Below are positions 3,358-21,495 of a stretch of DNA of 39,702 bases, piece after piece. Each line of letters opens with the position of its first letter. The first letter of the stretch is position 1. The notes beneath the pieces were generated by a model, which saw only the letters and a program-made list of their open reading frames with translations, searched no databases and had not been told where the DNA came from. A program made the position numbers and the translations under genes. The stretch is taken from positions 1 to 39,702 of the forward strand of contig JANJTM010000075.1 in assembly GCA_024711125.1 (NCBI GenBank). The letters run 5' to 3'. The DNA comes from Rhodothermales bacterium. Lineage in GTDB: Bacteria > Bacteroidota > Rhodothermia > Rhodothermales > UBA10348.

Positions 3358-6300
3358 ATGCTGCACCGGATCATCGACTTCTCCACCCGGCAGCGGTTCG
3401 TCGCGCTGTCCCTGGTGCTGCTGATGGCGGCGGGCGGCGTCGCCTCGCTCTTCCAGCTTCCGATAAACTCGCTGCCCGATGTCACGCCGGTCCAGGTGCT
3501 CGTCATCACGAAAGCCGGCCGCTACTCGCCTTACGACGTCGAGCGGCTCGTGAGTTTCCCGATCGAGACGGCCATGAACGGACTTCCCGAAGTCTCGGAA
3601 GTCCGTTCGATATCGCAGTTCGGCCTGTCTGCCGTGACCGTCGAATTCGAGGAATCGACCGACATCTATTTCGCACGCCAGCTCGTCGGGGCGCGGGTTC
3701 AGGCCGTGGCGGGCGATCTGCCCGAAGGCGTGGACGTTCCCCAGCTGGGTCCGATCTCGACGGCGCTGGGCGAGATCTACCAGTACGTCGTGCACTCCGA
3801 GACCCACAGCCTCGACGAACTGCGCGAGATCCAGGACTGGCTGGTCGGTCCACAGCTCAAGACCGTGCGGGGCGTGACCGAAATCACCGCGTTCGGCGGC
3901 CATGTGCGGCAGTACGAGGTGGTCGTGACTCCCGGCAAACTGCGTGCGCTCGGCATCGGTCTCCGCGACGTCATCGACGCGATCGCCGCGAACAACTCGG
4001 TTTCGGGCGGAAACTACCTCGAACACAACCGCGAGCAATACATCATCCGCGGCTTCGGCCTCATCGCGGGGGCGTCGGACATCGAGCAAATCGTCGTCGC
4101 CCAGGTGGGTTCGAGGCCGGTGTTCGTTCGGGACGTCGGAGAGGTTCGCGCGGGACGGCAGTTGCGCCAGGGAGCCGTGACCAAGGACGGTCACGGCGAG
4201 GTCGTGACGGGTATCGTCATGATGCTGCGGGGCGGCAACGGCCGCCAGGTGATCCAGGACGTCGAGGCGCGCATCGAGGAGATCAACCGGGGGCTCCCGG
4301 AAGGCGTTTCCATCCGCAAGTTCTACGACCAGTCGGATCTCGTCGACCGGACCACGTCGACCATCGAGACCAACCTGCTCGAGGGCGGGTTTTTCGTCAT
4401 TGCCGTACTTCTGCTGATGCTCGGCGAGATCGCGGGCGCGCTCATCGTTGCCTCGGTCATCCCGTTTTCGATGCTGTTCGCCTTCATCGGCATGCGCGAG
4501 TTCGGCCTCGCGGCCAACCTGATGAGCCTCGGCGCCATCGACTTCGGCATGGTCGTCGATGGATCGGTGGTGATGGTCGAGAACATGGTGCACCGCCTGC
4601 ACGAGTCGCACGGGAAGCGCAGTCCGGTGGACGTCATTCGGGAATCGGCCCACGAGGTCGCGCGCCCCATCTTCTTCGGCGTGCTGATCATCCTCATGGT
4701 CTACGTGCCCATCGCGACCTTCAGCGGCACGGAGGGCATCCTTTTCCGCCCGATGGCCATCACGGTGGCGACTGCCGTGTTCGGTTCGCTGCTTCTCGCC
4801 CTCGTCTACGTGCCGGCGCTCGCGACGATCGTGTTCCGACGCGGCATCCGCATGCGGCGAAACTACCTGATGGAGTGGATGCAGCCGCGGTATCGGGGCT
4901 TCCTGCAGAACAACCTGGACCGGACCGGGCGCACGGCACTCATCGCGGTCGGCCTCTTCGTCGCTTCCCTCGCTGTCGTTCCGTTCCTGGGTACCGAATT
5001 CCTGCCCGAACTGGACGAGGGCTCGATCCTCGTCGAACAGGTGCGCATGCCCAGCGTGACGCTTGACGAGTCGGTGGAGAACGCCGACCGGTTCGCGGCG
5101 CAGGTCATGGCGAAGATCCCGGAGGTGCAGTCGGTAGTGCCGAAAACCGGCCGCTCCGACCTCGCCAACGACTGGATGGGCGTACACCAGACGGACGTCT
5201 GGGTGATCCTCAAACCGAGGGAACACTGGCGCCCCGGCATCGAAAAGCCGGATCTGATCGAGGAGATGCGTCCGCTGCTGACCCACGAACCGGGCCTAGT
5301 GTACAATTTCACGCAGCCCATCGCGATGCGGGTCGATGAACTCACGAGCGGCGTGAAGTCTGACCTCGCGGTCAAGATCTTCGGCGAGGACCTCGAGACG
5401 CTGGAGGCGATCGGAAACCGTATTGCGGCCGTACTTCCGGACCTGCCCGGTACCGACAACTTCTTCGTCGAGCGAACGACCGGACAGCCGTATCTCAACG
5501 TCACGATCGACCGGGACGCCGTCGCGTCGTTCGGACTGAACGTCGAGGACGTGCAACAGGTCATCGAGGCCGGCATCGGCGGCCTGCCGGTCAGCGAGGT
5601 GTTCGAAGGGCAGCGAAGGTTCGACATCGTCGTCCGCTATCCGGAGGACGTGCGGGACCGGCTCGGGGTCATCGGCGACGTGCCCGTGCACCTCCCGAAC
5701 GGGGATTTCATTCCGCTCAGCCGGGTAGCCGACATCCGTGCCGAAGAAGGCCCGCGGGAAATCGCCCGCGAAAACGGGTGGAGACGCGTGGTCGTGGGCA
5801 TCAACCTGCGCGACATCGACATCGGTTCGTACGTCGCCGCGCTCCAGGCCTCGATCGACGAACGGGTGGACATCCCGCCGGGCAACTTCATCGCCTACGG
5901 AGGCTCGTTCGAAGACCAGCAGCGAGCGATGACCCATCTCATGATCGTAGTGCCCCTGGCGCTCTTCATCATTCTCGGACTGCTGTACCTGATGTTCGGC
6001 GAGATGCGGTACGCCTGGATGATCTTCCTGAACCTGCCGTTCGCGCTGTCGGGCGGCATTTTCCTCCTGTTCGTGAGGGGTCTCTACCTGTCGGTGTCGG
6101 CGTCGATCGGGTTCGTCGCACTGTTCGGCGTCGCGGTGCTGAACGGTGTCGTGCTGGTCGCGCACCTGAACGGATTGCGGTCGCAGGGGCGCCCGCTGCG
6201 GGAGGCGGTCATCGACGGAAGCGTGGACCGGCTGCGCCCGGTACTGATGACGGCGCTCGTGGCCAGCCTCGGTTTCGTGCCGATGGCGTTCAACGTCGGC

Positions 6301-6447
6301 CCGGGCAGCGAAGTGCAGCGGCCGCTCGCGACCGTCGTGATCGGCGGGCTCATCACGGCGACCGTCCTGACGCTGCGGGTGCTTCCGACGATCTACTACT
6401 GGTTCGAGAAACGCCGCGAATCCCGTCGGCAGGAGGTGGCGCCATGA
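3358..6447 (+). CDS. czcA: CzcA-type heavy-metal RND efflux pump
   Basis: Inner-membrane proton-driven pump that exports metal cations from the periplasm or cytoplasm through the tripartite complex. The length of 1029 residues is normal for the HME-RND family. A first TM helix follows the short N-terminus (LVLLMAAGGVASLFQLPINSLPDVTPVQV). The proton-relay helix reads GAIDFGMVVDGSVVMVEN (about residues 392-409) with Asp395, Asp401 and Glu408. This DFG...DG...EN pattern is the one known from divalent-cation pumps (Zn, Co, Cd, Ni) rather than the Cu/Ag CusA branch. Two large periplasmic loops and a second TM bundle (from about residue 860) complete the usual pseudo-repeat. A strong Shine-Dalgarno sequence overlaps the end of the adaptor gene, and the stop overlaps the next start (ATGA). 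The exact metal cannot be read from sequence. Confidence 0.95.
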   Translation: MLHRIIDFSTRQRFVALSLVLLMAAGGVASLFQLPINSLPDVTPVQVLVITKAGRYSPYDVERLVSFPIETAMNGLPEVSEVRSISQFGLSAVTVEFEESTDIYFARQLVGARVQAVAGDLPEGVDVPQLGPISTALGEIYQYVVHSETHSLDELREIQDWLVGPQLKTVRGVTEITAFGGHVRQYEVVVTPGKLRALGIGLRDVIDAIAANNSVSGGNYLEHNREQYIIRGFGLIAGASDIEQIVVAQVGSRPVFVRDVGEVRAGRQLRQGAVTKDGHGEVVTGIVMMLRGGNGRQVIQDVEARIEEINRGLPEGVSIRKFYDQSDLVDRTTSTIETNLLEGGFFVIAVLLLMLGEIAGALIVASVIPFSMLFAFIGMREFGLAANLMSLGAIDFGMVVDGSVVMVENMVHRLHESHGKRSPVDVIRESAHEVARPIFFGVLIILMVYVPIATFSGTEGILFRPMAITVATAVFGSLLLALVYVPALATIVFRRGIRMRRNYLMEWMQPRYRGFLQNNLDRTGRTALIAVGLFVASLAVVPFLGTEFLPELDEGSILVEQVRMPSVTLDESVENADRFAAQVMAKIPEVQSVVPKTGRSDLANDWMGVHQTDVWVILKPREHWRPGIEKPDLIEEMRPLLTHEPGLVYNFTQPIAMRVDELTSGVKSDLAVKIFGEDLETLEAIGNRIAAVLPDLPGTDNFFVERTTGQPYLNVTIDRDAVASFGLNVEDVQQVIEAGIGGLPVSEVFEGQRRFDIVVRYPEDVRDRLGVIGDVPVHLPNGDFIPLSRVADIRAEEGPREIARENGWRRVVVGINLRDIDIGSYVAALQASIDERVDIPPGNFIAYGGSFEDQQRAMTHLMIVVPLALFIILGLLYLMFGEMRYAWMIFLNLPFALSGGIFLLFVRGLYLSVSASIGFVALFGVAVLNGVVLVAHLNGLRSQGRPLREAVIDGSVDRLRPVLMTALVASLGFVPMAFNVGPGSEVQRPLATVVIGGLITATVLTLRVLPTIYYWFEKRRESRRQEVAP

Positions 6448-10122: not shown

Positions 10123-11724
10123 CTACCACCAGATCGCGTACAGCGCAGCCGTGATCCCGAGGATTCCGAACGCGAGCACCGCGAACACCGGGTCGGTCGT
10201 GCGCCACGTCGAATCGATCGTGATCGCCTTCGCGTCGTCCTTGCCCTTGTTCTCCCACCACGAGATCGCGACGATGAGCACGATCGAGGCGAGGAACGCG
10301 ACGCCCATGCGGTCGATGAAGGGCAGGCCCGGCAGGGCGTACTTCATCAGGAGCGAGAGCGGAATCGACAGCACGGCCGACGTGAGTGCGGCATTGGCCG
10401 TCGATTTCTTCCAGAACAGGCCCATCATGAAGATCGCCAGCACACCCGGACTCACCATGCCCGTGTATTCCTGGATGTACTGGAAGACCTGGTCGAGGCT
10501 CGAGAGCTGCGGGGCGAGCGCGACGGCGATCAGCATGCAGACGATGGCGACCGTCCGGCCGATCCGGACCAGTTGCTTCTCGCTCGCGTCCGTCCGGAAG
10601 TAGTGACGGTAGATGTCCATCGTGAAGATGGTCGCCGTCGAGTTCATCATCGACGCCAGCGACGAGACGATGGCCGCGATGAGCGCGGCGAACGTGAGAC
10701 CCTTGAAGCCGGGGCCCACGTATTCGCGCAACAGGTACGGGTATGCTTCATCGCCCTTGGATATCGGCGCCTCCAGCGCATAGGCCACGATGCCCGGGAT
10801 GACCACGATGAGCGGAAGGAGGAGCTTCAGGTAGCCCGCGAAAGCCACGCCGCGCTGGGCTTCGCGCAGGTCCTTGGCCGCGAGGGCGCGCTGGATGATG
10901 TACTGGTTGCAGCCCCAGTAGAAAAGGTTCGCGATCCACATGCCGCCCAGTAGGACCGAGAGGCCCGGCAGGAGGTCGTAGGCGTCCTTCGTCATGCCCG
11001 CGTCGTCGGTGTACATCAGCTCGCCCTTGAAGAGCACCATGTTGAACCGGTCGCCGGCCTCGGTCAGCAGCTTGCCGAAGCCCGAGAAGGCGCCGGCCCC
11101 GCCGGAATAGGCGTCGAGGGCGAGGTAGGTCGTCATGAGCCCGCCGCCCACGAGGAAGATCACCTGCACGACGTCGGTCCAGGCCACCGCCTTCAGCCCG
11201 CCGTACACCGAGTAGATGCCGGCAAACAGCGCCAGGCCGATCACGCCCGTCCAGAGCGGCACACCCATGATGCCCTTCATCGCCAGGGCGCCCAGGTAGA
11301 GCACCGAGGTGAGGTTCACGAACACGTAGACCAGCAGCCAGAACACCGCGAGCAACGTGCGCACGCGGCTGTCGTAGCGCACCTCGAGGAACTGCGGCAT
11401 CGTGAAGATGCCCTTCTTCAGGTAGATCGGAAGGAAGAAGTATGCGACGATGAGCAGCGTGACCGCCGCCATCCACTCGTAGGTCGCGATCGCGAGGCCG
11501 AGCCGGAATCCGGAGCCCGACATCCCGATGAACTGCTCGGCCGAGATGTTCGACGCGATGAGCGACGCGCCGATGGCCCACCAGGGTAGGGACTTCGACG
11601 CGAGGAAGTAATCCTCGGTGTTCTTTTCGTGGCCCTTCTTCTCGCGGGAGACCCAGAGACCGATGAAGATGATGAGGCCGACGTACCCGAAGAAGACCAG
11701 GTAGTCGATGGTTTCGAAGCCCAT
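10123..11724 (-). CDS. SGLT-type sodium/sugar symporter (SSS family)
   Basis: Inner-membrane Na+-coupled solute importer of 533 residues with about 14 predicted TM helices. The segments SNISAEQFIGMSGSGFRLGL and GLKAVAWTDVVQVIF closely follow the sugar-transporting vSGLT branch of the family, including the EQFIGMSG helix that lines the sugar and sodium sites. A hexose or related sugar is therefore the best substrate guess. The start at 11724 (MGFETIDYLVFFGYVG) gives the usual short periplasmic N-terminus; the much longer upstream frame has no family similarity. A perfect GAAACGTTTC palindrome lies 14 bases upstream of the start. The gene is divergent from the molybdoenzyme cluster. Confidence 0.92.
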   Translation of the reverse strand: MGFETIDYLVFFGYVGLIIFIGLWVSREKKGHEKNTEDYFLASKSLPWWAIGASLIASNISAEQFIGMSGSGFRLGLAIATYEWMAAVTLLIVAYFFLPIYLKKGIFTMPQFLEVRYDSRVRTLLAVFWLLVYVFVNLTSVLYLGALAMKGIMGVPLWTGVIGLALFAGIYSVYGGLKAVAWTDVVQVIFLVGGGLMTTYLALDAYSGGAGAFSGFGKLLTEAGDRFNMVLFKGELMYTDDAGMTKDAYDLLPGLSVLLGGMWIANLFYWGCNQYIIQRALAAKDLREAQRGVAFAGYLKLLLPLIVVIPGIVAYALEAPISKGDEAYPYLLREYVGPGFKGLTFAALIAAIVSSLASMMNSTATIFTMDIYRHYFRTDASEKQLVRIGRTVAIVCMLIAVALAPQLSSLDQVFQYIQEYTGMVSPGVLAIFMMGLFWKKSTANAALTSAVLSIPLSLLMKYALPGLPFIDRMGVAFLASIVLIVAISWWENKGKDDAKAITIDSTWRTTDPVFAVLAFGILGITAALYAIWW

Positions 11725-11737
11725 GGCGGTGCGGATT

Positions 11738-11995: not shown

Positions 11996-14224
11996 ATGAA
12001 CAATCGGCGCAGTTTCCTGAAGATCGGGGCCCTGGGCCTCGGCGGCCTCGCGGTCGCTCCCACCCTGATGCGCAGGCGGGCCGACGCGTCGGCCACGTTT
12101 CCCGTGCAGCCGGGCGATTCCGTCACGATGACGCCGACGTACTGCGAGATCTGCTTCTGGCAGTGCGCGGGCTGGACCTTCACGAAGAACGGCAGGCCCT
12201 GGAAGATCGTCGGCAACCCGGACGACCGCCATTCGAACGGCCGGTTCTGTACGCGCGGAACGGGCGGAATGGGCGCGTACACCGACCCCGACCGCCTTCG
12301 CACGCCGCTTCTCCGGGTGGAAGGACCCGACGGCCAGCATTTCCGCGAAGCCACGTGGGAAGAGGCCTTCGACTACATCGCCGAAAAGCTGAACCACGTC
12401 CGGTCCACGTACGGCGGCGAATCGCTCGCCATGTTCAGCCACGGCAACGGTGCCACCCACTTCAAGACGCTGACCAAGGCGTTCGGCTCGGCCAACATCA
12501 CGGCACCCTCCTACGCCCAGTGCCGCGGGCCCCGCGACGATGCGTTCCTCCTCACGTTCGGCGAGACCGTCGGATCGCCCGAGCGTACCGACATCGAGAA
12601 TTCGCGGTGCCTGGTCCTGATCGGTTCGCACATCGGGGAGAACCTGCACAACGGGCAGGTCCAGGAGATGGCCACCGCGATCGAACGCGGGGCCGAGATC
12701 ATCGTGGTCGATCCGCGCTTCTCGGTGGCGGCGTCCAAGGCGAAACACTGGCTTCCGATCAAACCGTCGACGGACCTGGCCCTCCTGCTCGCCTGGATCC
12801 ACGTGATCGTCGAGGAAGGGCTCTACGACCGCGAGTACGTGGACCGCTACACGACCGGTTTCGACCAATTGAAAGCCGCCGTGGCGTCGAATACGCCGGA
12901 GTGGGCCTATCCGATCACGACGCTGCACCCGGACGTCATCCGCGAGACCGCCCGCACGATGGCGCGGAACGCCCCGGCGACCCTCGTGCATCCCGGACGC
13001 CACGTGACGTGGTACGGCGACGACACCCAGCGTAGCCGGGCCGTCGCGATCCTGAACGCGCTCCTGGGCAGTTGGGGAAGGAAGGGCGGTTTCTACTTCC
13101 CGAGCGAGGTCGCATTCGAGGACGAGCCGCACCCGCCCTACCCGAAACCGCGCTGGACGTGGGCCGACCTGGCGCCCGACGCGTACCCGTTCGCGTCTTC
13201 GTCGATCGCTTCGCTGATCCGGGACGCGACCGCCGATCCGTCGATGGCGCCCGACAAGCCGATCAAGGCCTGGCTGGTCTACGGGTCCAACCTGATCTAC
13301 GCGCTGCCCGAACCCGAGAAGACCATCCAGGCGATCCAGAACCTGGACCTGCTCGTCGCGGTCGACATCCAGCCCGCGGAAATCTGCGGATGGGCCGACG
13401 TGGTGCTTCCCGAGTGTACCTACCTCGAGCGCTACGACGACATCCGCACCTCGCCGGGTCGCGTGCGGCAGATCGCGCTGCGGGCACCGGCCTTCGAACC
13501 CTCGTTCGATACGAAGCCGGCCGCCTGGATGGTCAAGCAGCTCGCGCCGCGCCTGGGGCTGGAGGCCTGGTTCCCCTGGAACGACATGGAAGAGTGGTTG
13601 GACCGGCGCCTCGCCCAGGTCGGCTCTTCGCTGGAGGAAATGCGGCGGATCGGCGTGAAGACGCTGGACGGCGAGGGTCCTCTCTACCTGGCCGAAGGCG
13701 AAGCGATGGAGTTCAACACGCCCAGCGGCAGGATCGAACTGGCGTCGGAGCAACTCGCGGCCGCCGGATTCGACGCGGTGCCGCGGTACACCCCGCACGA
13801 CGAACCACCCCCGGGCTACTATCGCCTGTTGTCGGGTCGCTCACCGGCCCACACCTTCGCCCGCACGATCAACAACCCGCTGCTGAACGAGATCCAGTCG
13901 GAGAACGACCTCTGGGTCAACACGGTGACCGCAGAGGATTGGGGTCTGAAGAACGGGCAGGAAGTGCGCCTCAGGAACTCGGCGGGACGCATTTCGACGT
14001 TCCCGATCCGCGTCCGCGTGACCGAGCGCATCCGTCCGGACAGCCTGTACATGGTGCACGGCTTCGGCCATACCGAGAAGCTCCTGACGAAGGCCTTCGG
14101 CCGGGGAGCCGACGACAACGAGCTGATCGAGAACGTGAAGATCGACCCCCTGATGGGCGCGACGGCCCGACGCAATACGTTCGTCACGTTCGAGATCGAA
14201 GAAACCGGCGTGGAGGCAGTCTGA
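11996..14224 (+). CDS. Tat-exported molybdopterin oxidoreductase (PsrA/PhsA-like catalytic subunit)
   Basis: Catalytic subunit of a three-part molybdenum enzyme of the polysulfide/thiosulfate reductase type (DMSO reductase superfamily). The 742-residue length suits PsrA/PhsA and is shorter than SoeA or ArrA. A twin-arginine signal (NNRRSFLKIGALGLGGLAV) sends the folded protein to the periplasm. A 4Fe-4S binding motif CX2CX3CX27C is formed by Cys50, Cys53, Cys57 and Cys85. Cys176 in SYAQCRGPRDD sits where the family places its molybdenum ligand. The C-terminal domain (from about 600) has the guanine-dinucleotide-binding fold (LLSGRSPAHTFARTINNP). The start at 11996 is set by the Tat signal; no clear ribosome-binding site precedes it. 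The ferredoxin subunit starts 4 bases after the stop. The direction of reaction and the substrate (polysulfide, thiosulfate, sulfite or other) cannot be decided here. Confidence 0.9.
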   Translation: MNNRRSFLKIGALGLGGLAVAPTLMRRRADASATFPVQPGDSVTMTPTYCEICFWQCAGWTFTKNGRPWKIVGNPDDRHSNGRFCTRGTGGMGAYTDPDRLRTPLLRVEGPDGQHFREATWEEAFDYIAEKLNHVRSTYGGESLAMFSHGNGATHFKTLTKAFGSANITAPSYAQCRGPRDDAFLLTFGETVGSPERTDIENSRCLVLIGSHIGENLHNGQVQEMATAIERGAEIIVVDPRFSVAASKAKHWLPIKPSTDLALLLAWIHVIVEEGLYDREYVDRYTTGFDQLKAAVASNTPEWAYPITTLHPDVIRETARTMARNAPATLVHPGRHVTWYGDDTQRSRAVAILNALLGSWGRKGGFYFPSEVAFEDEPHPPYPKPRWTWADLAPDAYPFASSSIASLIRDATADPSMAPDKPIKAWLVYGSNLIYALPEPEKTIQAIQNLDLLVAVDIQPAEICGWADVVLPECTYLERYDDIRTSPGRVRQIALRAPAFEPSFDTKPAAWMVKQLAPRLGLEAWFPWNDMEEWLDRRLAQVGSSLEEMRRIGVKTLDGEGPLYLAEGEAMEFNTPSGRIELASEQLAAAGFDAVPRYTPHDEPPPGYYRLLSGRSPAHTFARTINNPLLNEIQSENDLWVNTVTAEDWGLKNGQEVRLRNSAGRISTFPIRVRVTERIRPDSLYMVHGFGHTEKLLTKAFGRGADDNELIENVKIDPLMGATARRNTFVTFEIEETGVEAV

Positions 14225-14228
14225 CGCG

Positions 14229-14774
14229 ATGAAAACCCGCCGCTACGCGATAGTCATCGACACGCTGCGCTGCATCGGATGCGCCGACTGCGTGGTCGCC
14301 TGCAAGACCGAAAACGAGGTGCCCGAAGGCTACTGCCGGGACTGGATCACCGAAGCGACGACCGGGACGTTTCCGGAACTGCATACCGAGTACCGGTCGG
14401 AGCGCTGCAACCACTGCTCGAATCCGCCCTGCGTGCATGCCTGCCCCACCGGCGCCAGCTTCGTGGCCGACGGATCGAACGTCACGCTGGTCGACCCGGA
14501 ACTCTGCACCGGCTGCAAGTCCTGCATCGCCGCCTGTCCCTACGACGCACGGTTCGTACTTCCGGAAGGCTACGTATCGAAGTGCACGTTCTGCATGCAC
14601 CGCGTGGAGGTGGGGCTCGATCCGGCCTGTGTTTCGGCCTGCCCGACGCGCTGCATGGCATTCGGCGACTGCAACGACCCCGATTCGGAAGTGAGCCGAC
14701 TCCTGCGCACCCGCACGTGGAAAGTCATCGCGCCCGAAGCCGGCACCGAACCGAACGTCTACTACCTGACCTGA
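14229..14774 (+). CDS. Four-cluster ferredoxin subunit (PsrB/PhsB-like)
   Basis: Electron-transfer subunit of 181 residues with four cysteine clusters in the order expected for PsrB/NrfC-type proteins: CIGCADCVVAC (near residue 16), CNHCSNPPCVHAC (near residue 59), CTGCKSCIAAC (near residue 94) and CTFCMHRVEVGLDPACVSAC (near residue 120). Each pattern supports one 4Fe-4S cluster formed by cysteines shared in the usual crossed manner. It has no signal peptide, as expected for a partner exported together with the Tat-bearing catalytic subunit. Electrons would pass from or to the NrfD membrane subunit. A GGAGG precedes the ATG by about 12 bases and overlaps the end of the previous gene. Confidence 0.93.
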   Translation: MKTRRYAIVIDTLRCIGCADCVVACKTENEVPEGYCRDWITEATTGTFPELHTEYRSERCNHCSNPPCVHACPTGASFVADGSNVTLVDPELCTGCKSCIAACPYDARFVLPEGYVSKCTFCMHRVEVGLDPACVSACPTRCMAFGDCNDPDSEVSRLLRTRTWKVIAPEAGTEPNVYYLT

Positions 14775-14837
14775 GCGAGACCCACGAGGGTGCGCGGCGC
14801 CGCGAACGGCCGCCGCCTGCGCCACGCGAGAACCACC

Positions 14838-15785
14838 ATGGAAGAATTCGTCATCACGCAGAAAGCCAACCCGCACATCGACCCCGGTCTCGCGATCTGG
14901 GGCTGGGAAGTGCCGGTCTACCTGTTCCTGGGGGGCCTGGCCGCCGGGCTGCTGCTGCTCGGTGCCGTGAGCGTGCTGCGCGCAGAAACCGACCGGCCCG
15001 CCGCGCAGCGCCTTCTCGGCCTCGTGACTCCCATCCTGGGCATCGGCATGGGCGCCTTGTTCCTCGACCTGGAACACAAGCTCCATGTCTGGCGCTTCTA
15101 CACCGCCTTCCAGGTGACCGCTCCGATGTCCTGGGGCTCGTGGATCCTCCTCTTCGCGGTCCCGGTGAACCTGCTGCTCGCACTGGGAACCGCCGGCAAC
15201 GCCTTCGGACCGGGCTTCCGGGCCTTCGCCGACCGACTTCCCGCCCTCGCTCCACTCGAAGCGTGGGCCATCGCACGCCGACGCCCGCTAGCCTGGCTGT
15301 CGGTCGCGATCGCGGTGGCGGTGGGCATCTACACCGGCATCCTGCTCAGCGCCTACGGAGCCCGTCCCTTCTGGAACAGCGCCATCCTGGGGCCGCTCTT
15401 CCTCACGTCGGGCGTTTCGGCTGCAGCCGCCGCCCTGCAGCTCGCGGCCCGCACTCACGGCGAACGCCTTCCCTTCGAACGGCTCGACGTAGGGCTCCTG
15501 GTCATCGAACTGCTCCTGATGGGGCTGCTGGTCGTCACGCTCGTCTCCGGCCCCCTGCAGGCACAGCGGGCCGCCGATCTCGTGCTGGGCGGTCCGATGA
15601 CCGTGTATTTCTGGGTGTTCGTCGTCGGCCTCGGCGTGCTGCTTCCGCTCTCGCTCGAGACCTTCCAGCTTCGCGGTTACCGGCTTCCGGTATTCGTGGC
15701 GCCGGCCTTCGTGCTCATGGGGTCGCTGGTGTTCCGCTTCTTCATCGTGGAGGCGGGCCAGGTCACCACCTGGATCGCGTATTGA
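14838..15785 (+). CDS. NrfD/PsrC-type membrane quinone-interacting subunit
   Basis: Polytopic inner-membrane protein of 315 residues, typical for the NrfD/PsrC family, which exchanges electrons with the quinone pool and anchors the molybdoenzyme-ferredoxin pair. About eight to nine hydrophobic helices can be traced. The N-terminus (ITQKANPHIDPGLAIWGWEV, PVYLFLGGLAAGLLLLG) matches the family opening, and DLEHKLHVWRFYTAF with the following SWGSWILL segment matches the conserved loop after the second helix. The start at 14838 (MEEFVITQ) is chosen over an in-frame codon at 14790 because family similarity begins here. It lies 63 bases after the ferredoxin stop and 4 bases before the next gene. Confidence 0.92.
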   Translation: MEEFVITQKANPHIDPGLAIWGWEVPVYLFLGGLAAGLLLLGAVSVLRAETDRPAAQRLLGLVTPILGIGMGALFLDLEHKLHVWRFYTAFQVTAPMSWGSWILLFAVPVNLLLALGTAGNAFGPGFRAFADRLPALAPLEAWAIARRRPLAWLSVAIAVAVGIYTGILLSAYGARPFWNSAILGPLFLTSGVSAAAAALQLAARTHGERLPFERLDVGLLVIELLLMGLLVVTLVSGPLQAQRAADLVLGGPMTVYFWVFVVGLGVLLPLSLETFQLRGYRLPVFVAPAFVLMGSLVFRFFIVEAGQVTTWIAY

Positions 15786-15789
15786 TTCC

Positions 15790-16302
15790 ATGCCGTCCAA
15801 ACCCTATTTCAACCCCTACCTGGCCGGAATCGGCCTTGGCCTGGTCCTGCTGGCCGCCTTCCTCATCTCGGGCCGCGGCCTCGGCGCGTCAGGCGCCATC
15901 ATGCGCACGGTCGTCCAGGCCGAGAAAGCCGTGGCGCCCGGCCACGTGGACGCCAATCCGTACCTGTCGGCCTACGGCGGCGGTGACCGCAATCCCTGGG
16001 ACGAGTGGCTGGTACTCGAGACCCTCGGAGTGCTCGTGGGAGGACTCCTTTCGGGCGCATTCGGAAAGCGTATCCGCCGCGAGATCAACCACGGCCCACG
16101 CATCACCCCGCGGCAGCGGCTCGGCTACGCCCTCGTCGGCGGCGCGCTCTTCGGCTACGGCGCCCGCCTTGCCCGCGGGTGCACCAGCGGCGTCGCCCTG
16201 ACCGGCGGAGCGACGCTGGCCGTCGGAAGCTGGGCCACGATGCTCGCCATCTTCGCCGGTGCGTACGGCCTCGCGTACTTCATGCGCCGCCTCTGGATCT
16301 GA
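15790..16302 (+). CDS. YeeE/YedE-family half-transporter, first copy
   Basis: Membrane protein of 170 residues with about four hydrophobic segments and the motif ARGCTSGVALTGGA (Cys131), the conserved cysteine motif of YeeE/YedE (Sul_transp) proteins. The family includes the thiosulfate importer TsuA, where conserved cysteines relay thiosulfate through the membrane. Full-length members carry two such halves; this gene encodes only one, and the second half is the next gene 22 bases downstream. It starts 4 bases after the NrfD gene, so it is probably in the same operon, which supports handling of a sulfur compound. The loop GHVDANPYLSAYGGGDRNPWDEW is the typical periplasmic insertion of this subtype. 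Confidence 0.88.
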   Translation: MPSKPYFNPYLAGIGLGLVLLAAFLISGRGLGASGAIMRTVVQAEKAVAPGHVDANPYLSAYGGGDRNPWDEWLVLETLGVLVGGLLSGAFGKRIRREINHGPRITPRQRLGYALVGGALFGYGARLARGCTSGVALTGGATLAVGSWATMLAIFAGAYGLAYFMRRLWI

Positions 16303-16324
16303 ACTCCGAAACCCGGTTCCCACG

Positions 16325-16936
16325 ATGTTTCCGCTCGTCGACACCCTCGGATTCGGCACGCCGACCGACTACGTGCTCGCCTTCCTTCTCGGCATCGGGT
16401 TCGGCTTCTTCCTGGAGAGCGCCGGATTCGGCAACGCGAACAAGCTCGCGATGCAGTTCTACTTCCGTGACCTGTCGGTCTTCAAGGTCATGTTCACGGC
16501 CATCGTGACCGCCATGACGGGCCTCGTCGTGCTCTCGTCGGCGGGCCTGCTCGACAGTTCGCTCCTGTATCTGAATCCGACGTTCCTGTGGCCCGGCATC
16601 GTGGGCGGACTCATCATGGGAGCCGGCTTCATCATCGGGGGATATTGCCCGGGCACGGCGCTGGTCGGCGTCGTCACCGGCAAGATCGACGCGATGATGT
16701 CGGTCGTGGGCGGCATGCTGGGCATGGCGCTTTTCTCGGAGACCTACGGCATCCCGGCGATCGCACGGTTCTACGCGCTCGAAACCGAGGGTCTGACCGG
16801 GACCATCACGCTCCCCGAGTGGCTCGGCGTTCGTCCGGGACTCGTGGCCGCGGCCGTGCTCGCGGTCGCCGTCGCCGGCTTCTGGGGCTCGGAATGGGCC
16901 GAATCGTACCACGCGCGAAAGACCGCCCAGGCCTGA
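16325..16936 (+). CDS. YeeE/YedE-family half-transporter, second copy
   Basis: The 203-residue membrane protein has five or so hydrophobic segments and the motif IGGYCPGTALVG (Cys108), the second conserved cysteine motif of the YeeE/YedE family. FGFFLESAGFGNANKLAMQFYFRD near the N-terminus is also characteristic. Together with the preceding gene it would make one complete two-half transporter for thiosulfate or a related sulfur compound. The ATG at 16325 is chosen because residues coded upstream belong to a frame overlapping the previous gene and lack family similarity. One base separates its stop from the next ATG. Confidence 0.88.
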   Translation: MFPLVDTLGFGTPTDYVLAFLLGIGFGFFLESAGFGNANKLAMQFYFRDLSVFKVMFTAIVTAMTGLVVLSSAGLLDSSLLYLNPTFLWPGIVGGLIMGAGFIIGGYCPGTALVGVVTGKIDAMMSVVGGMLGMALFSETYGIPAIARFYALETEGLTGTITLPEWLGVRPGLVAAAVLAVAVAGFWGSEWAESYHARKTAQA

Positions 16937-16937
16937 A

Positions 16938-17513
16938 ATGAAGACGACCCTGCTCGCAATCGCCGCACTGGCCGGCCTGGTCCTCGTACTGTGTCCTTGT
17001 CCGGAGCCCGCGCAGCCGACGCCCCACGAGGCCGGACCGAGGGATCTCGTCGCGCCCGCCACGCTCGTCGATTGGCTCGTTTCGGGCGATCGGCACGTGC
17101 ACCTCGTGGACGTGCGGCCCGTCGCCGCGTTTCTCCGGGCCGGCATCCGTACCGCAGAATCGATGCCCGCCGATTCGATCGATGCCGCGCTGCTTCGGGC
17201 CATCCCGGTCTCGCATCCCGTCGTCGTTTACGGGGATTCGGCGGAGGATGCCCGGTCGGCGTTTTCGCGCATCAAGGCGATCCACGACCGGACCTATCTT
17301 CTCTCGGGCGGATACGCGGCCTGGCGTGACGAGGTGCTCACCGCGGGCGCTCCTCCCGACACTCCCGACGAAGACGCATGGAGCGCGTACCTGACCCGCG
17401 TTGCGCTGGTGAAGTACCTGCGGGGCGAATCCGACGACGCGCCGGCACCGGCGCGCCGTACGGTGCAGCCGACCGCCCGACCGCGCATCAAGGTCGCCAA
17501 CGAGGGCTGCTGA
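16938..17513 (+). CDS. Rhodanese-like protein lacking the catalytic cysteine
   Basis: The 191-residue protein has an N-terminal hydrophobic segment (residues 4-18) ending in LCPCPEP, either a signal anchor or a lipoprotein signal, so it is probably periplasmic. A rhodanese fold follows: HLVDVRPVAAFLRAGI (about 55-70), VVVYGDSAED (95-104) and YLLSGGYAAWRDEV (120-133). In active rhodaneses a cysteine begins the loop after the VVVY strand and accepts sulfane sulfur; here that place is Gly-Asp-Ser, so sulfurtransferase activity is unlikely. Other cysteines are only near the N-terminus and at the last residue (ANEGC). The context, directly behind two sulfur-transporter halves, suggests a binding or chaperone role. 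Its 3' end overlaps the most upstream start of the cytochrome gene. Confidence 0.82.
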   Translation: MKTTLLAIAALAGLVLVLCPCPEPAQPTPHEAGPRDLVAPATLVDWLVSGDRHVHLVDVRPVAAFLRAGIRTAESMPADSIDAALLRAIPVSHPVVVYGDSAEDARSAFSRIKAIHDRTYLLSGGYAAWRDEVLTAGAPPDTPDEDAWSAYLTRVALVKYLRGESDDAPAPARRTVQPTARPRIKVANEGC

Positions 17514-19318
17514 CCCTCCTCGCGGTTCTGGCCCTCGCCGGCTGCCTTCCCGAGCGCCGGCAATCCTCCATCGTCCCGGTCGCCGACGAACGCTGCCTCG
17601 ATTGCCACGCCGACGAGGCCGGGTTCTCTCCTTTCCACCGGCCCGAGAGCATCGGGTGTGTTTCGTGTCACGGGGGCGATGCCCGGGCCGCGGGCGCCGG
17701 CGCCGCCCATGCCGGGATGCGGGCCATCCCGGGCAACCTCGCCGACGCGGCGGTGTCGTGCGGAACCGCCGGGTGCCATCCCGACCAGGTGGCCCGCGTT
17801 GCGACCTCGATGATGGCCACCGCGCGCGGCATCGTCGCGGTCGATCGCTGGGTTTTCGGGGAGCGGGATACGCCGGACCCGGATGCTTACGAAGCGCCCG
17901 CCGGTCGGGCGCCCGACCCGCACGAGGTGCCCGGCTCCATGTCGACCCTGGGCGACTCCCCGGCAGACTCCCACCTGCGCGCGCTGTGCGCCTCGTGCCA
18001 CCTGGGCACGCCCAAGACGACCACGGGTCCCCTTCAGCCGCTGTCGCGCGGCGGGGGATGCCTTGCGTGCCACCTGGTCCACGACGAGGGTGCTACCCAC
18101 GCGCGCCTGACCGTCGACGTGCCCTCGGCCCGCTGTTTCGGATGCCATGCTCGGTCCGGCCGCATCAGCACCAACTACTCGGGATGGCATGAGACCGTGC
18201 TGGGCTACGAAGGCCTCGACCCCCGGGATTCGACCTTCACCATCCTCGCCGACGGGCGAGTATTCGAGCGGATGCCCCCCGACGTGCACCACGAGGCGGG
18301 CATGGAGTGCATCGATTGCCACACCTCGCGCGAGGTCATGGGCGACGGTATCGTGTACGGACACCAGGAAGAAGCGATCGAGACCACGTGTACCGGCTGT
18401 CACTCGTCCGCCCGCCCCGCAACGCTCGCGTGGGACGAACTTGGCGAAGAGGACCGCCGCATCGTGGCGCTGCGCTCGGGCAAGGCCGAAGCGGCGCGCC
18501 GATTCGTCGCGAGCGACCGTTCGGGCCGTGCGCTCATCAACGTATTCCTGGACGAGGAGGGGCGGCGTGTGCTCGAAGGCAAGCTCGACGGGAGGCGCCG
18601 GATGCCGACCGCTCCGGCCGATGCCTGCGCGCGCCCGGGTCACGAGCGCCTCTCCTGCCAGTCCTGCCATTCCGCGTGGAACCCGCAGTGCCTGGGCTGC
18701 CACACCCAGCGCACCGGCGACGGGGAATGGGTGGAACTGCTGTCGGATTTCCGTTCGGACCCGCCGGTACTGGGCGTGCGCGAAACCCCGCCTGCCCAAC
18801 AGGACCCCGCGCCGCCACAGGCGTCGCGCATCGAACCGTTCGCTCCCGGCATGATCATGACGCTCAACCCCGCGCCCTCGCACGGCGACCCTTCGTCAGC
18901 GGTCGGAACGGGATCCTTCCACCGGCTGTTCGCGCCCAGCGTCCCGCATACTACCGCGGCCGTCGGGCGTACGTGCGAATCCTGTCATCTCGACCCGCTG
19001 GCGCTGGGAGTCGGGCGCGGAACGATCACGCTCGGCCCGGACCTGCGCTGGAGGTTCAACCCCGAATACGCCGCCCTTCGCGACGGTCTTCCGGCCGACG
19101 CCTGGACGCCGTTCCTGCGGGATGCGACCCGACCGAACGCCACGCGGACCGACGCCCGTCCGTTCACGCCGGCCGAGCAGGAAGCGATCCTTCGGGTCGG
19201 GGCCTGCCTTTCGTGCCATCCCGGGAACGACCCCCGCTGGCGGAGCCTGTACGACGATTTCGACGCGGCCCTGCGTGCGACGTCGGCCGCCTGCCGCGTG
19301 CCGGTCGGTCGGCCCTGA
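17378..19318 (+). CDS. Multihaem c-type cytochrome lipoprotein (about 12 haems)
   Basis: The product (646 residues from the ATG at 17378) carries eleven CXXCH haem-binding motifs: CLDCH, CVSCH, CASCH, CLACH, CFGCH, CIDCH, CTGCH, CQSCH, CLGCH, CESCH and CLSCH. One CX4CH variant (CGTAGCH) brings the total to up to twelve c-haems. A lipoprotein-like segment (LLTLLAVLALAGC) precedes the haems, so the protein is exported and probably membrane-attached. The start is uncertain: the ATG overlaps the rhodanese gene by 136 bases out of frame, no ATG, GTG or TTG lies between it and the signal, and a CTG at 17510 overlaps the rhodanese stop (CTGA) behind a GAGGG. I keep the ATG because it retains arginines before the hydrophobic stretch. 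It is last in the sulfur/redox cluster and could exchange electrons with the molybdoenzyme or with external acceptors. No close functional match is recognised. Confidence 0.88.
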   Translation: MERVPDPRCAGEVPAGRIRRRAGTGAPYGAADRPTAHQGRQRGLLTLLAVLALAGCLPERRQSSIVPVADERCLDCHADEAGFSPFHRPESIGCVSCHGGDARAAGAGAAHAGMRAIPGNLADAAVSCGTAGCHPDQVARVATSMMATARGIVAVDRWVFGERDTPDPDAYEAPAGRAPDPHEVPGSMSTLGDSPADSHLRALCASCHLGTPKTTTGPLQPLSRGGGCLACHLVHDEGATHARLTVDVPSARCFGCHARSGRISTNYSGWHETVLGYEGLDPRDSTFTILADGRVFERMPPDVHHEAGMECIDCHTSREVMGDGIVYGHQEEAIETTCTGCHSSARPATLAWDELGEEDRRIVALRSGKAEAARRFVASDRSGRALINVFLDEEGRRVLEGKLDGRRRMPTAPADACARPGHERLSCQSCHSAWNPQCLGCHTQRTGDGEWVELLSDFRSDPPVLGVRETPPAQQDPAPPQASRIEPFAPGMIMTLNPAPSHGDPSSAVGTGSFHRLFAPSVPHTTAAVGRTCESCHLDPLALGVGRGTITLGPDLRWRFNPEYAALRDGLPADAWTPFLRDATRPNATRTDARPFTPAEQEAILRVGACLSCHPGNDPRWRSLYDDFDAALRATSAACRVPVGRP

Positions 19319-19435: not shown

Positions 19436-20098
19436 ATGACCCCCGAAGAACGTGATCGGGTCCTGGACGGCGCCGTCGCCGCCTGGGAAGCCGATTTCGA
19501 GCATTACTCCCTGGCCGCCGTCGCCGATGCCTCGGGCATCGACGCCGGGACCATACGCGCGGCGATCGGCGACGAACTGGACGTGCAGGCCGCCTGGTAC
19601 GCGCGGGCCGTCGAACGGGTCGGCGAGGCCGCGCGTGCGCTCGAACAGGACACGCCGACCCCGTCGGAAGACCGCATCGGCGCTCGTCTCTACATGCTGT
19701 TCGACGTCTTCGACGAACACCGCGAGTTTGCTCATGCCACGTATTCGAAGCGGGCGGCCTGCTGGGGATCGACCTTCCGCGAGGCCGTGGCCCGCGAGGT
19801 GGCGGCCGTGCTCGACGCGCCGGATGTGCCCGGCGTGAACCGGGCCATCGGGTCCTCGGCCCCCGTGAGGGCTGCTGTCGTGGAAGCGTGCGTGCATACG
19901 ATCGGTCTCTGGATTGACGACGAATCCCCCTCGCGCGAGCGGGCCACCGCCTTGGTGGACCGCCTGGTGAGCTTCGCCGGCACGCTGGCGACCGATCGCA
20001 CGCTCGAGAAAGGCATCGACCTCGTGCGCTACGCGGCCGGGGCCGGGTACCTGCCCTTCGTCGGGGACCTGTTCTCCAAGAAGGGCGGCGACGCATGA
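19436..20098 (+). CDS. TetR/COQ9-like helix-rich protein
   Basis: The 220-residue protein is predicted all-helical. The N-terminal part (YSLAAVADASGIDAGTIRAA, about residues 22-42) looks like a TetR-type helix-turn-helix, and the C-terminal two thirds (FDVFDEHREFAHATYSKRAACW, residues about 80-102) resemble the TetR ligand domain as also found in COQ9. The next gene encodes an ABC1/UbiB-family kinase and their start and stop overlap (ATGA). COQ9 and COQ8/UbiB are partners in quinone biosynthesis, so a lipid-binding role is as plausible as DNA binding. The start at 19436 is preferred to an in-frame ATG at 19346, whose extra 30 residues are low-complexity. The 117 bases before it, after the cytochrome, hold no clear promoter. 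Confidence 0.72.
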   Translation: MTPEERDRVLDGAVAAWEADFEHYSLAAVADASGIDAGTIRAAIGDELDVQAAWYARAVERVGEAARALEQDTPTPSEDRIGARLYMLFDVFDEHREFAHATYSKRAACWGSTFREAVAREVAAVLDAPDVPGVNRAIGSSAPVRAAVVEACVHTIGLWIDDESPSRERATALVDRLVSFAGTLATDRTLEKGIDLVRYAAGAGYLPFVGDLFSKKGGDA

Positions 20099-21495
20099 GC
20101 GACCACCGCACCGGGGAAGCACCCGCGGCCGAGCCAGAGAGCTTTCCATCGTCACGTCTCGCGAGAGGCGCCGTCGTGGCGAAGGCCGGGCTCCAGGTCG
20201 GGGCCAACTATGCGAAGTACCTCGCGCGCCGCGCGGCCCGCTCCGAAGACGCCGGCGAGCTGAAACGCCGCCTGCACGACGAGAACGCCAACGACCTCTT
20301 CGCGCAGCTCGTCAAACTGCGCGGAACCGCGCTCAAGCTCGCCCAGGGCATGAGCCTCGACCCGGGGCTGCTGCCCGAGGAGTTCGCAGGCGTCATGGCG
20401 CAGGCGCAGTACCGGGTTCCGCCCATGAACCGGGCGTTGGTGCGACGCCTCGTGCGGCAGCAGCTGGGTGCCGATCCCGAGGCCGTTTTCGCGTCTTTCG
20501 AACCGGAAGCCGCCGCCGCGGCGTCGATCGGACAGGTGCACCGCGCGGTCCTTAAGGACGGGCGCGAGGTGGCCGTGAAGATCCAGTACCCGAACGTGCG
20601 CCAGACCATCGAGTCGGACCTGTCGATGGCGCGCGCGCTCGCCTCCCGCATCGCGCCCGCACTGCTCGAATCGGGCCGCGTCGAACCCTTCATCGAGGAA
20701 GTGCGCACCATGATGCGCCGCGAGACCGATTACCGGGAGGAGGGCGCAACCATCGAGGTGTTCCATCTCCAGTACGGCAGCGGCCACGTCGTCACCCCGC
20801 GGTGGATCCCCGAGCTGTCCACGGAGTCGGTCCTGGTCATGACCTGGCTCGACGGGGTGCACCTGGACGCCTTCCTGGCCGGCGGGCCGTCCCGCGAGTC
20901 GCGCGACCGGTATGGGCAACTCTTCTGGGACTTCGTCAACGAGCAGGTGGCGTCGAACACCTGCACCGTGCACGCCGACGTGCACCCCGGCAATTTCCTC
21001 TTCCGGGAGGACGGCCGCCTCGGGGTCATCGATTTCGGGTGCATCAAGACCTTTCCGCAGTACTTCCGGGACGCGTTCCTGCGGATCTGGGATGCGCACG
21101 TGCACGGACGCGGGGAACGCCTCGAAGACCTCTACGAGGAGGTCGAGATCTTCCAGGCCGACCAGACCCCGGAACTTCGCGCACGGCTGCGGGGCTTTTT
21201 CGGACGATTCGCGCATGCTATCCTCGCTCCGTACCGGGCGGGGCTGGACGGCGGCGCGGGCGCGTTCGACTTCGGAGACCCCGCGTTCCGGGAGTCCCTC
21301 CTTCCGCTTTTCCAGGAAGCCTCCCAGTTCAACGCGGCCGTCGGCTCGCCTCATTTCGTGTTCGTGAACCGCATCCTCTTCGGCCTGTTCAGCGTGCTCA
21401 GCCGCCTCGGCGCGCGGGTGGATACGCGTGCGAGCGTCGCCGGGATGGAGGCCGCGGTGGCCGAGATCGAAACCCGACTCGGCCGGAGTTCCTGA
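20095..21495 (+). CDS. ABC1/UbiB-family atypical kinase (AarF-like)
   Basis: The 466-residue protein carries the protein-kinase-like core of the ABC1/ADCK family, which supports ubiquinone or other isoprenoid-lipid metabolism by an ATPase-like activity. Visible motifs are KLAQ at 81-84 in the position of the KxGQ motif, the alanine-rich nucleotide loop AAAAASIGQVHRA (139-151), the VAVK lysine (Lys162), the catalytic loop HADVHPGN (293-300) and the metal-binding DFG (313-315). The KxGQ glycine is replaced by alanine. No C-terminal TM pair typical of UbiB is seen, so it is an AarF-like soluble or peripheral form. The start overlaps the TetR/COQ9-like stop, and the hydrolase gene begins 1 base after its stop. 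Confidence 0.9.
   Translation: MSDHRTGEAPAAEPESFPSSRLARGAVVAKAGLQVGANYAKYLARRAARSEDAGELKRRLHDENANDLFAQLVKLRGTALKLAQGMSLDPGLLPEEFAGVMAQAQYRVPPMNRALVRRLVRQQLGADPEAVFASFEPEAAAAASIGQVHRAVLKDGREVAVKIQYPNVRQTIESDLSMARALASRIAPALLESGRVEPFIEEVRTMMRRETDYREEGATIEVFHLQYGSGHVVTPRWIPELSTESVLVMTWLDGVHLDAFLAGGPSRESRDRYGQLFWDFVNEQVASNTCTVHADVHPGNFLFREDGRLGVIDFGCIKTFPQYFRDAFLRIWDAHVHGRGERLEDLYEEVEIFQADQTPELRARLRGFFGRFAHAILAPYRAGLDGGAGAFDFGDPAFRESLLPLFQEASQFNAAVGSPHFVFVNRILFGLFSVLSRLGARVDTRASVAGMEAAVAEIETRLGRSS

What the first reader, a model, noticed from the sequence alone, without database searches (positions are those of the whole stretch)
11996..19318. Seven-gene sulfur-type redox cluster ending in a 12-haem lipoprotein
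A PsrABC-like molybdoenzyme (Tat catalytic subunit, four-cluster ferredoxin, NrfD) is followed with gaps of 1-63 bases by two YeeE/YedE half-transporters, a cysteine-less rhodanese and a multihaem lipoprotein. Known PsrABC/PhsABC systems pass electrons between quinone and a sulfur compound; a dedicated sulfur transporter and a many-haem exported cytochrome in the same run are not standard parts. I infer a module that takes electrons from thiosulfate, sulfite or polysulfide (or delivers them) and wires them to a haem conduit or surface acceptor.
Basis: partly seen in the sequence, partly recalled or inferred. Interest (0 to 1): 0.62.

Follow-up and report, generated by a model that had tools for sequence, protein, structure and literature searches.

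The report
PsrABC sulfur reductase with tethered sulfur-relay
A bacterium of the Bacteroidota carries a polysulfide/thiosulfate-reductase-type enzyme in one operon with a split sulfur transporter and an odd rhodanese that has lost its catalytic cysteine but ends in a conserved glycine-cysteine tail, which looks like a swinging arm that hands sulfur from enzyme to transporter; a 12-haem cytochrome is an optional add-on.

Summary
Observation real. 11996-17513 is a PsrABC-type molybdoenzyme (closest solved relative Thermus Psr, 869 bits, the next 261) followed by both halves of a YeeE/PmpAB sulfur transporter and a rhodanese-fold protein. This six-gene order recurs in 64 of 80 related loci across Bacteroidota, Calditrichota, KSB1 and Marinimicrobia; 15 of the other 16 are cut by a contig end. 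The arrangement was noted once before (PMC6338057). The "cysteine-less" rhodanese lacks only its active-site Cys: 75 of 81 copies end at or one residue after a conserved Gly-Cys. In other Bacteroidota the same PmpAB + Gly-Cys rhodanese cassette sits beside octahaem tetrathionate reductase, with the rhodanese often fused to the transporter half, or beside a secreted SseA-type rhodanese that keeps its catalytic Cys. Most likely the Gly-Cys tail is a sulfur-carrying arm between periplasmic sulfur enzyme and transporter. The 12-haem protein is ExtM-like (Geobacter selenite/tellurite cluster). In 296 genomes it occurs only with this PsrA clade (9 of 22; 0 of 274 others), but it is an accessory; in relatives it is fused to cytochrome b beside a Rieske protein, so it probably belongs to a quinol-oxidising branch. 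Substrate, direction and surface acceptor remain unshown.

The parts
11996..14224 (+). PsrA/PhsA-type catalytic subunit (Mo-bisMGD, one 4Fe4S, Tat signal MNNRRSFLK)
   Evidence: PF00384, PF01568, PF04879; NCBIfam PhsA 462 bits, below cut-off 694; profile vs Thermus Psr 2vpw 869 bits, next best 261; 47.6% identity to 2vpw over 719 columns, Cys176 = Thermus Cys173
14229..14774 (+). PsrB-type four-cluster ferredoxin subunit
   Evidence: PF13247 and others; 19 Cys
14838..15785 (+). PsrC/NrfD-type membrane quinone subunit
   Evidence: PF03916 141 bits
15790..16302 (+). PmpA-like C-terminal half of a YeeE/YedE transporter; its only Cys (131) invariant in 78 of 78
   Evidence: PF04143 positions 177-309; family description in PMC11582611
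16325..16936 (+). PmpB-like N-terminal half of a YeeE/YedE transporter; its only Cys (108) invariant in 73 of 73
   Evidence: PF04143 positions 4-159
16938..17513 (+). Rhd-GC: membrane-anchored rhodanese-fold protein without the active-site Cys, ending in Gly-Cys (Cys191)
   Evidence: PF00581; AlphaFold2 pLDDT 89 and Foldseek hits to rhodanese domains; 75 of 81 homologues end at or one residue after Gly-Cys
17378..19318 (+). ExtM-like 12-haem c-type cytochrome, lipobox LAG|C at ~17543; start codon uncertain (ATG 17378 or a non-ATG start near 17507)
   Evidence: NCBIfam NF040943 ExtM 224 bits over 13-582, below cut-off 800; 12 invariant haem motifs in nine sequences

Best explanation
The operon makes a menaquinone-linked PsrABC complex whose Tat-exported catalytic subunit acts on sulfane sulfur (polysulfide, persulfide or thiosulfate) in the periplasm. 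It also makes a sulfur-handling cassette: a split YeeE pore (PmpA+PmpB, one essential-type Cys each) and a membrane-tethered rhodanese-fold protein (Rhd-GC) whose working cysteine has moved from the rhodanese loop to the last residue of a flexible tail. I propose that the terminal Cys carries sulfur as a persulfide, much as Sud does for Wolinella Psr and SoxY does in the Sox pathway, presenting it to the PsrA active site and exchanging it with the PmpAB Cys relay, so that periplasmic zero-valent sulfur is both respired (to sulfide) and imported. The ExtM-like 12-haem cytochrome is an optional second redox branch, probably fed from quinol. Shown by sequence: gene content, conserved order, loss and relocation of the Cys, one invariant Cys per transporter half, fusion of Rhd-GC to the transporter half in related operons. 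Inferred: persulfide on the tail, transfer to PmpAB and PsrA, reductive direction, the cytochrome's electron source.
For: PsrA profile vs Thermus Psr E 2.5e-260. Clade of 98 block-type PsrA sequences, SH-aLRT 95, with the Thermus and g38 PsrA (no transporter or rhodanese found beside the latter) outside. Six-gene order in 64 of 80 loci, 15 of 16 exceptions cut by contig ends. 75 of 81 rhodaneses end at or one residue after Gly-Cys and no active-site Cys column exists. Rhodanese fold with a lower-confidence tail. Same cassette beside octahaem tetrathionate reductase, with Rhd-GC fused to PmpB in one ORF (L152, L153, L156, L157, L159), and beside a secreted SseA-like rhodanese that keeps a single Cys in the canonical loop YCHIGQQA (L149-L151). 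Above 77 bits every Rhd-GC hit in 296 genomes is beside Psr, OTR or an SseA-type gene, apart from one on a separate contig of a Psr genome. Literature: split YedE1E2 imports zero-valent sulfur and both Cys are essential (PMC10812762); PmpA/PmpB anatomy (PMC11582611); Sud presents polysulfide to Psr (PMC2628731).
Against: No biochemistry for any member. Psr, Phs and Sre cannot be told apart by sequence (PMC8359478), and Psr-type enzymes may run in reverse. A transporter that imports zero-valent sulfur is not needed for purely periplasmic sulfur respiration. The periplasmic side of Rhd-GC rests on weak charge bias. 6 of 81 copies lack the Gly-Cys end and L112 lacks the transporter.
Confidence: 0.5

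Rival explanations
1. Oxidative mode: PsrABC oxidises sulfide (or persulfide) to zero-valent sulfur, electrons enter menaquinone and leave through the ExtM-like cytochrome or an oxidase, and Rhd-GC plus PmpAB import the sulfur for a cytoplasmic persulfide dioxygenase.
For: Split YedE imports but does not export zero-valent sulfur (PMC10812762); the genome has a metallo-beta-lactamase + rhodanese protein next to a second YeeE locus (G000:C49); reverse Psr is proposed in the literature (PMC5688066; PMC8359478); the cytochrome occurs only in genomes that have this PsrA.
Against: The sister cassette with octahaem tetrathionate reductase is reductive by family. Bacteroidales isolates (Marinifilum, Carboxylicivirga, Sunxiuqinia) carry the block without the cytochrome.
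Confidence: 0.2
2. Thiosulfate (or tetrathionate-derived thiosulfate) reductase: PsrABC splits thiosulfate to sulfide and sulfite, and PmpAB moves thiosulfate rather than zero-valent sulfur.
For: Best NCBIfam model is PhsA (462 bits); full-length YeeE/TsuA proteins take up thiosulfate; the cassette recurs beside tetrathionate-reductase-family cytochromes, whose product would be thiosulfate.
Against: The score is well under the PhsA cut-off (694). The transporter is the split PmpAB type, for which zero-valent sulfur uptake has been shown; the full-length homologue YedE3 did not do this.
Confidence: 0.17
3. Selenium/tellurium oxyanion system: the operon is a relative of the Geobacter ext cluster (rhodanese ExtH, 12-haem ExtM, Rieske/cytochrome b ExtO/ExtP).
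For: The cytochrome matches ExtM end to end, and in relatives it is fused as ExtP-ExtQ-ExtM beside a Rieske protein.
Against: ExtM score 224 against cut-off 800. The ext cluster as described contains a porin and no PsrABC or PmpAB (PMC5877670). Most PsrA-block genomes have no ExtM. The ext function itself rests on a porin (ExtI) mutant.
Confidence: 0.08
4. The cytochrome is a chance neighbour: the functional unit ends at 17513.
For: Only 8 of 80 loci have it within 10 kb; 13 of 20 named block genomes tested lack it; its position and orientation vary.
Against: In 296 genomes all 9 with the cytochrome have the block-type PsrA, Fisher p = 1.2e-11, not corrected for shared ancestry; in 8 of the 9 the two lie at one locus; in the window the reading frames overlap.
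Confidence: 0.15

Closest known systems
Thermus thermophilus / Wolinella PsrABC and Salmonella PhsABC
   Same: Tat-exported Mo-bisMGD subunit, four-cluster ferredoxin, NrfD anchor; all four Fe-S Cys and the Mo-ligand Cys aligned to Thermus Psr
   Different: Own clade, about 46-50% identical to Thermus Psr in the members measured, nearly always with PmpAB and Rhd-GC downstream; below the PhsA cut-off
psrABC - DUF395 pair - rhodanese cluster of 'Ca. Thermonerobacter thiotrophicus' (PMC6338057)
   Same: Same six-gene arrangement with a MerR regulator in front; its psrABC is most similar to that of Melioribacter roseus and Ignavibacterium album
   Different: Described in passing as transporter and sulfurtransferase; the passages seen do not mention the missing active-site Cys, the Gly-Cys tail, the OTR/SseA counterparts or a 12-haem cytochrome
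PmpAB / YedE1E2 split zero-valent sulfur transporter
   Same: Two ~170-200 aa halves matching the C and N halves of YeeE, one conserved Cys each
   Different: Followed by Rhd-GC here, even fused to it in related operons; no persulfide dioxygenase at this locus
Sud (Wolinella polysulfide-sulfur transferase)
   Same: Rhodanese fold, proposed sulfur carrier for Psr
   Different: Sud works through the rhodanese-loop Cys (own knowledge); Rhd-GC has none there and ends in Gly-Cys; membrane anchored
SoxY with SoxT (YeeE family)
   Same: Exported carrier with a Cys near the C terminus working with a YeeE-type transporter
   Different: Different fold (rhodanese), bare terminal Gly-Cys instead of GGCGG, no Sox enzymes
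Geobacter ext cluster, ExtM
   Same: 12-haem cytochrome with end-to-end similarity; rhodanese, Rieske and cytochrome b neighbours in relatives
   Different: Far below the ExtM cut-off; no porin, ExtK/L/N/S; tied to PsrABC instead

Membership tests
PsrABC/PhsABC (complex iron-sulfur molybdoenzyme) | Catalytic subunit with Molybdopterin, Molydop_binding and Fe4S4 domains, Tat signal, Cys ligand to Mo | tested here: met
PsrABC/PhsABC (complex iron-sulfur molybdoenzyme) | Four-cluster ferredoxin and NrfD membrane subunit encoded next | tested here: met
PsrABC/PhsABC (complex iron-sulfur molybdoenzyme) | Polysulfide or thiosulfate reductase activity | not testable with these tools
   sequence cannot separate Psr, Phs and Sre (PMC8359478)
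PhsA thiosulfate reductase (NCBIfam NF012032) | Score over the curated cut-off of 694 bits | tested here: not met
   462 bits
PmpAB / YedE1E2 split YeeE transporter | Two short proteins matching the N and C halves of PF04143, one conserved Cys each | tested here: met
   definition
PmpAB / YedE1E2 split YeeE transporter | Uptake of zero-valent sulfur | not testable with these tools
   shown only for proteobacterial homologues
Rhodanese / Sud sulfurtransferase | Rhodanese fold | tested here: met
   PF00581 over cut-off; AF2 + Foldseek
Rhodanese / Sud sulfurtransferase | Catalytic Cys in the active-site loop | tested here: not met
   no Cys column in the active-site loop
SoxY | SoxY fold with C-terminal GGCGG motif | tested here: not met
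   rhodanese fold; ends in Gly-Cys, with at most one residue more
ExtM (NCBIfam NF040943) | Score over cut-off of 800 bits | tested here: not met
   224 bits in the window, 242-258 in the relatives scanned
ExtM (NCBIfam NF040943) | 12 haem sites | tested here: met
   11 CXXCH + 1 CX4CH, conserved
Geobacter ext cluster | ExtH-S gene set (porin, ExtKL, ExtN, Rieske ExtO, cytochrome b ExtP, ExtS) next to ExtM | tested here: not met
   absent in the window; relatives have Rieske plus ExtP-ExtQ-ExtM fusion only
YTD cluster of sulfur disproportionators | YedE with TusA and DsrE | tested here: not met
   no TusA or DsrE in the block; definition

The most novel reading that the evidence does not exclude
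Rhd-GC is a new class of periplasmic sulfur carrier: a rhodanese fold that moved its catalytic cysteine to a C-terminal swinging arm and is dedicated to a split YeeE pore, forming a plug-in sulfur-relay module shared by three different periplasmic sulfur enzymes (PsrABC, octahaem tetrathionate reductase, SseA-type rhodanese).
Probability: 0.5. Interest if true: 0.75.

Novelty: new variant of a known kind. Interest (0 to 1): 0.6.

Why it matters
How periplasmic sulfur enzymes hand sulfane sulfur to YeeE-type transporters is an open question; for SoxT it is only suggested that SoxY passes sulfur along the pore cysteines (PMC11582611). Here the presumed hand-over partner is in the operon, fused to the transporter half in related operons, with a single candidate cysteine at the end of the chain, so the question becomes a one-residue experiment. 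The module is common in anaerobic Bacteroidota, Calditrichota and Marinimicrobia, several of them cultured, and psr genes of Marinimicrobia are already cited as evidence of sulfur cycling in oxygen-poor waters.

Tried and rejected
AlphaFold2 of the 12-haem cytochrome (pLDDT 44) is unusable and no fold search was made from it. PDB sequence search with the cytochrome gave only local haem-region matches to NrfA-type enzymes. The own genome's only ExtP-like cytochrome b (G000:C54) is part of a ferredoxin/FlpD/SCO locus, not an ExtP partner. The YTD and MOLY disproportionation clusters were considered as matches; YTD is rejected on gene content, and MOLY is described only as molybdopterin oxidoreductases MolyABC without transporter or rhodanese. 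The promoter/terminator scan gave nothing above chance. One crystal-structure paper of YeeE is not held.
Full report
WHAT IS THERE. The seven genes described at 11996-19318 are real and in one run on the + strand. Gaps are 4, 63, 4, 22 and 1 bases; the cytochrome frame overlaps the rhodanese gene. The first three genes are a complete molybdoenzyme set: a Tat-exported catalytic subunit, a four-cluster ferredoxin and an NrfD protein. The next two match complementary halves of the sulfur-transport family PF04143 (C half first, then N half), followed by a rhodanese-domain protein and a 12-haem cytochrome. The contig ends at 39702. The genome (3.79 Mb) belongs to the GTDB phylum that holds Bacteroidota records: one member of the phylum sample, G006, has the same contig as a named 'Bacteroidetes bacterium' locus (L125 = L081).

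THE ENZYME. A profile of eight catalytic subunits matches Thermus thermophilus Psr (2vpw) with 869 bits; the next best solved protein scores 261, and ArrA 204. The window protein is 47.6% identical to Thermus Psr over 719 aligned residues, with all four Fe-S cysteines and the Mo-ligand cysteine aligned. Among NCBIfam models PhsA is best (462 bits) but below its cut-off; TtrA scores 43 and ArrA 158. In a tree of 105 sequences the catalytic subunits that come with transporter and rhodanese form one group of 98 (SH-aLRT 95). Thermus Psr and a group from one genus (g38, whose three inspected loci have PsrABC without transporter or rhodanese) lie outside. The window's sequence is on a long branch nearest Calditrichota (quick method, long branches flagged).

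THE CORE IS SIX GENES. Eighty related loci were taken from named genomes (Bacteroidales, Marinifilum, Carboxylicivirga, Sunxiuqinia, Calditrichota, KSB1, Marinimicrobia, one 'Deltaproteobacteria' MAG). In 64 the order PsrA-PsrB-PsrC-PmpA-PmpB-rhodanese is complete; 15 of the other 16 are cut by a contig end and only L112 is a true exception. The arrangement is not new: PMC6338057 describes psrABC with a two-gene DUF395 transporter, a rhodanese and a MerR regulator in 'Ca. Thermonerobacter', with psrABC closest to Melioribacter and Ignavibacterium.

THE TRANSPORTER HALVES each contain exactly one invariant cysteine: Cys131 in 78 of 78 C halves, Cys108 in 73 of 73 N halves. This is the PmpA/PmpB anatomy (PMC11582611). 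A split YedE1E2 pair of this type imports zero-valent sulfur in E. coli, needs both cysteines and does not export (PMC10812762).

THE ODD RHODANESE. It is not cysteine-less. It has lost the cysteine of the active-site loop, and the homologues show no cysteine column there either, while 75 of 81 homologues end in Gly-Cys or have one residue after it (GGC, EGC, KGC, GGCS, GGCG), after a lysine/proline-rich stretch. The window protein ends ...KVANEGC. AlphaFold2 gives a confident rhodanese fold (pLDDT 89) with a lower-confidence tail (62 in the last block), and Foldseek finds rhodanese domains. I call it Rhd-GC.

THE CASSETTE IS REUSED. Rhd-GC was sought in 296 genomes of the phylum. Of the 54 best hits, 22 lie beside this PsrA, 23 beside an octahaem tetrathionate-reductase-family cytochrome, and 9 elsewhere. 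Of those 9, five are SseA-type loci (read), one is on a separate contig of a Psr genome, and the three weakest (61-66 bits) were not read. Twelve loci were read. In the octahaem operons (TIGR04315 584-602 bits, cut-off 375; 420 bits to Shewanella OTR 1sp3) a cytochrome b561 and PmpA follow, and PmpB is fused to Rhd-GC in one 394-400 residue protein ending in GGC (GGCT in L152) in five loci. In a second set a secreted two-domain SseA-like rhodanese precedes PmpA-PmpB-Rhd-GC. In three of these it has a single Cys, in the canonical loop YCHIGQQA, and in L150 a SufS-family desulfurase follows. So a normal rhodanese and a loop-Cys-less, tail-Cys rhodanese sit side by side, and the tail-Cys one can be part of the transporter polypeptide. 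This is the strongest reason to think that the tail, not the loop, does the sulfur chemistry and that it serves the transporter.

THE CYTOCHROME. It matches ExtM of the Geobacter selenite/tellurite cluster from end to end (224 bits, cut-off 800) and has 12 conserved haem sites. In the 296-genome sample full-length homologues occur in 9 genomes, all among the 22 with this PsrA (Fisher p = 1.2e-11, ignoring shared ancestry). It lies at the PsrA locus in 8 of the 9; in G116 the two are on different contigs. Among 20 named genomes with the block 7 have it (one of these matches is a fragment and one is a weaker, more distant match). So in this sample the cytochrome occurs only with the module, but the module does without it. 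Placement varies: downstream in the window, upstream or divergent elsewhere. In many relatives it is fused behind a cytochrome b (ExtP-ExtQ-ExtM) and preceded by a Rieske protein and sometimes MobA, which suggests electrons from quinol rather than from PsrB. The window genome has no such partner at the locus, and its only ExtP-like cytochrome b belongs to another system. A link to a surface acceptor is untested.

MOST LIKELY FUNCTION. A quinone-linked Psr-type reductase works with a tethered sulfur relay: Rhd-GC's terminal Cys carries sulfane sulfur between the PsrA site and the PmpAB pore. Shown: gene content, conservation, cysteine relocation, fusion to the transporter half. Inferred: persulfide on the tail, periplasmic location (net charge +1.9 before and -0.2 after the membrane helix on average; mixed in the fusions), reductive direction, sulfur import as by-product or sulfur source. 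Sequence cannot separate polysulfide from thiosulfate (PMC8359478), and the reverse direction is possible. The Sud precedent (a rhodanese presenting polysulfide to Psr, PMC2628731) and the SoxY/SoxT precedent make the relay plausible without making this protein a member of either family.

Noticed in passing
L152:7961-9160(-), L153:7139-8332(+), L156:7028-8209(-), L157:7097-8284(+), L159:7668-8849(-): Single proteins fusing the N half of YeeE to a loop-Cys-less rhodanese with a C-terminal GGC tail (GGCT in L152), in operons with an octahaem tetrathionate-reductase-family cytochrome and cytochrome b561; 23 of 43 such octahaem loci in the phylum sample have Rhd-GC nearby.
   Followed up: partly
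L148-L151: PmpA-PmpB-Rhd-GC (ending VRMGC or MRMGC) with a secreted SseA-like rhodanese before them; the active-site Cys was confirmed in L149-L151 (not checked in L148), and a SufS-family cysteine desulfurase follows in L150: a third context of the cassette.
   Followed up: partly
L044:6574-7989 (G000:C44): The window's own genome encodes an 8-CXXCH-motif cytochrome with a C-terminal T9SS sorting domain (26.1 bits, cut-off 23), i.e. possibly a surface cytochrome.
   Followed up: no
L043:6398-8467 and G000:C49:113948-114961: Second YeeE locus of the genome next to a metallo-beta-lactamase + rhodanese protein (persulfide-dioxygenase-like) and an ArsR-like regulator.
   Followed up: partly
L146:7540-9678(-) (G000:C54): Fusion of cytochrome b, ferredoxin clusters and an FlpD domain next to a SCO1 protein; unusual quinone-linked redox protein.
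   Followed up: no
L038:2631-3915(-) and second Rhod copies in several loci (e.g. L061, L071, L083): Tandem second Rhd-GC paralogue with its own GGC end directly behind the first.
   Followed up: no
L112: Marinifilum sp. N1E240 has a divergent PsrABC without transporter, with rhodaneses upstream, one ending SGGC.
   Followed up: no
window 17378-17543: The cytochrome gene has no ATG/GTG/TTG close to its lipobox; either a ~57-residue signal from ATG 17378, read inside the rhodanese gene, or a non-standard CTG start near 17507.
   Followed up: partly
window 10126-11730(-), 19436-20098, 20095-21495, 3358-6444: Neighbours: divergent sodium:solute symporter, a TetR-type regulator (weak Pfam match), ABC1-type kinase and an RND efflux pump; no sign that they belong to the module.
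   Followed up: no
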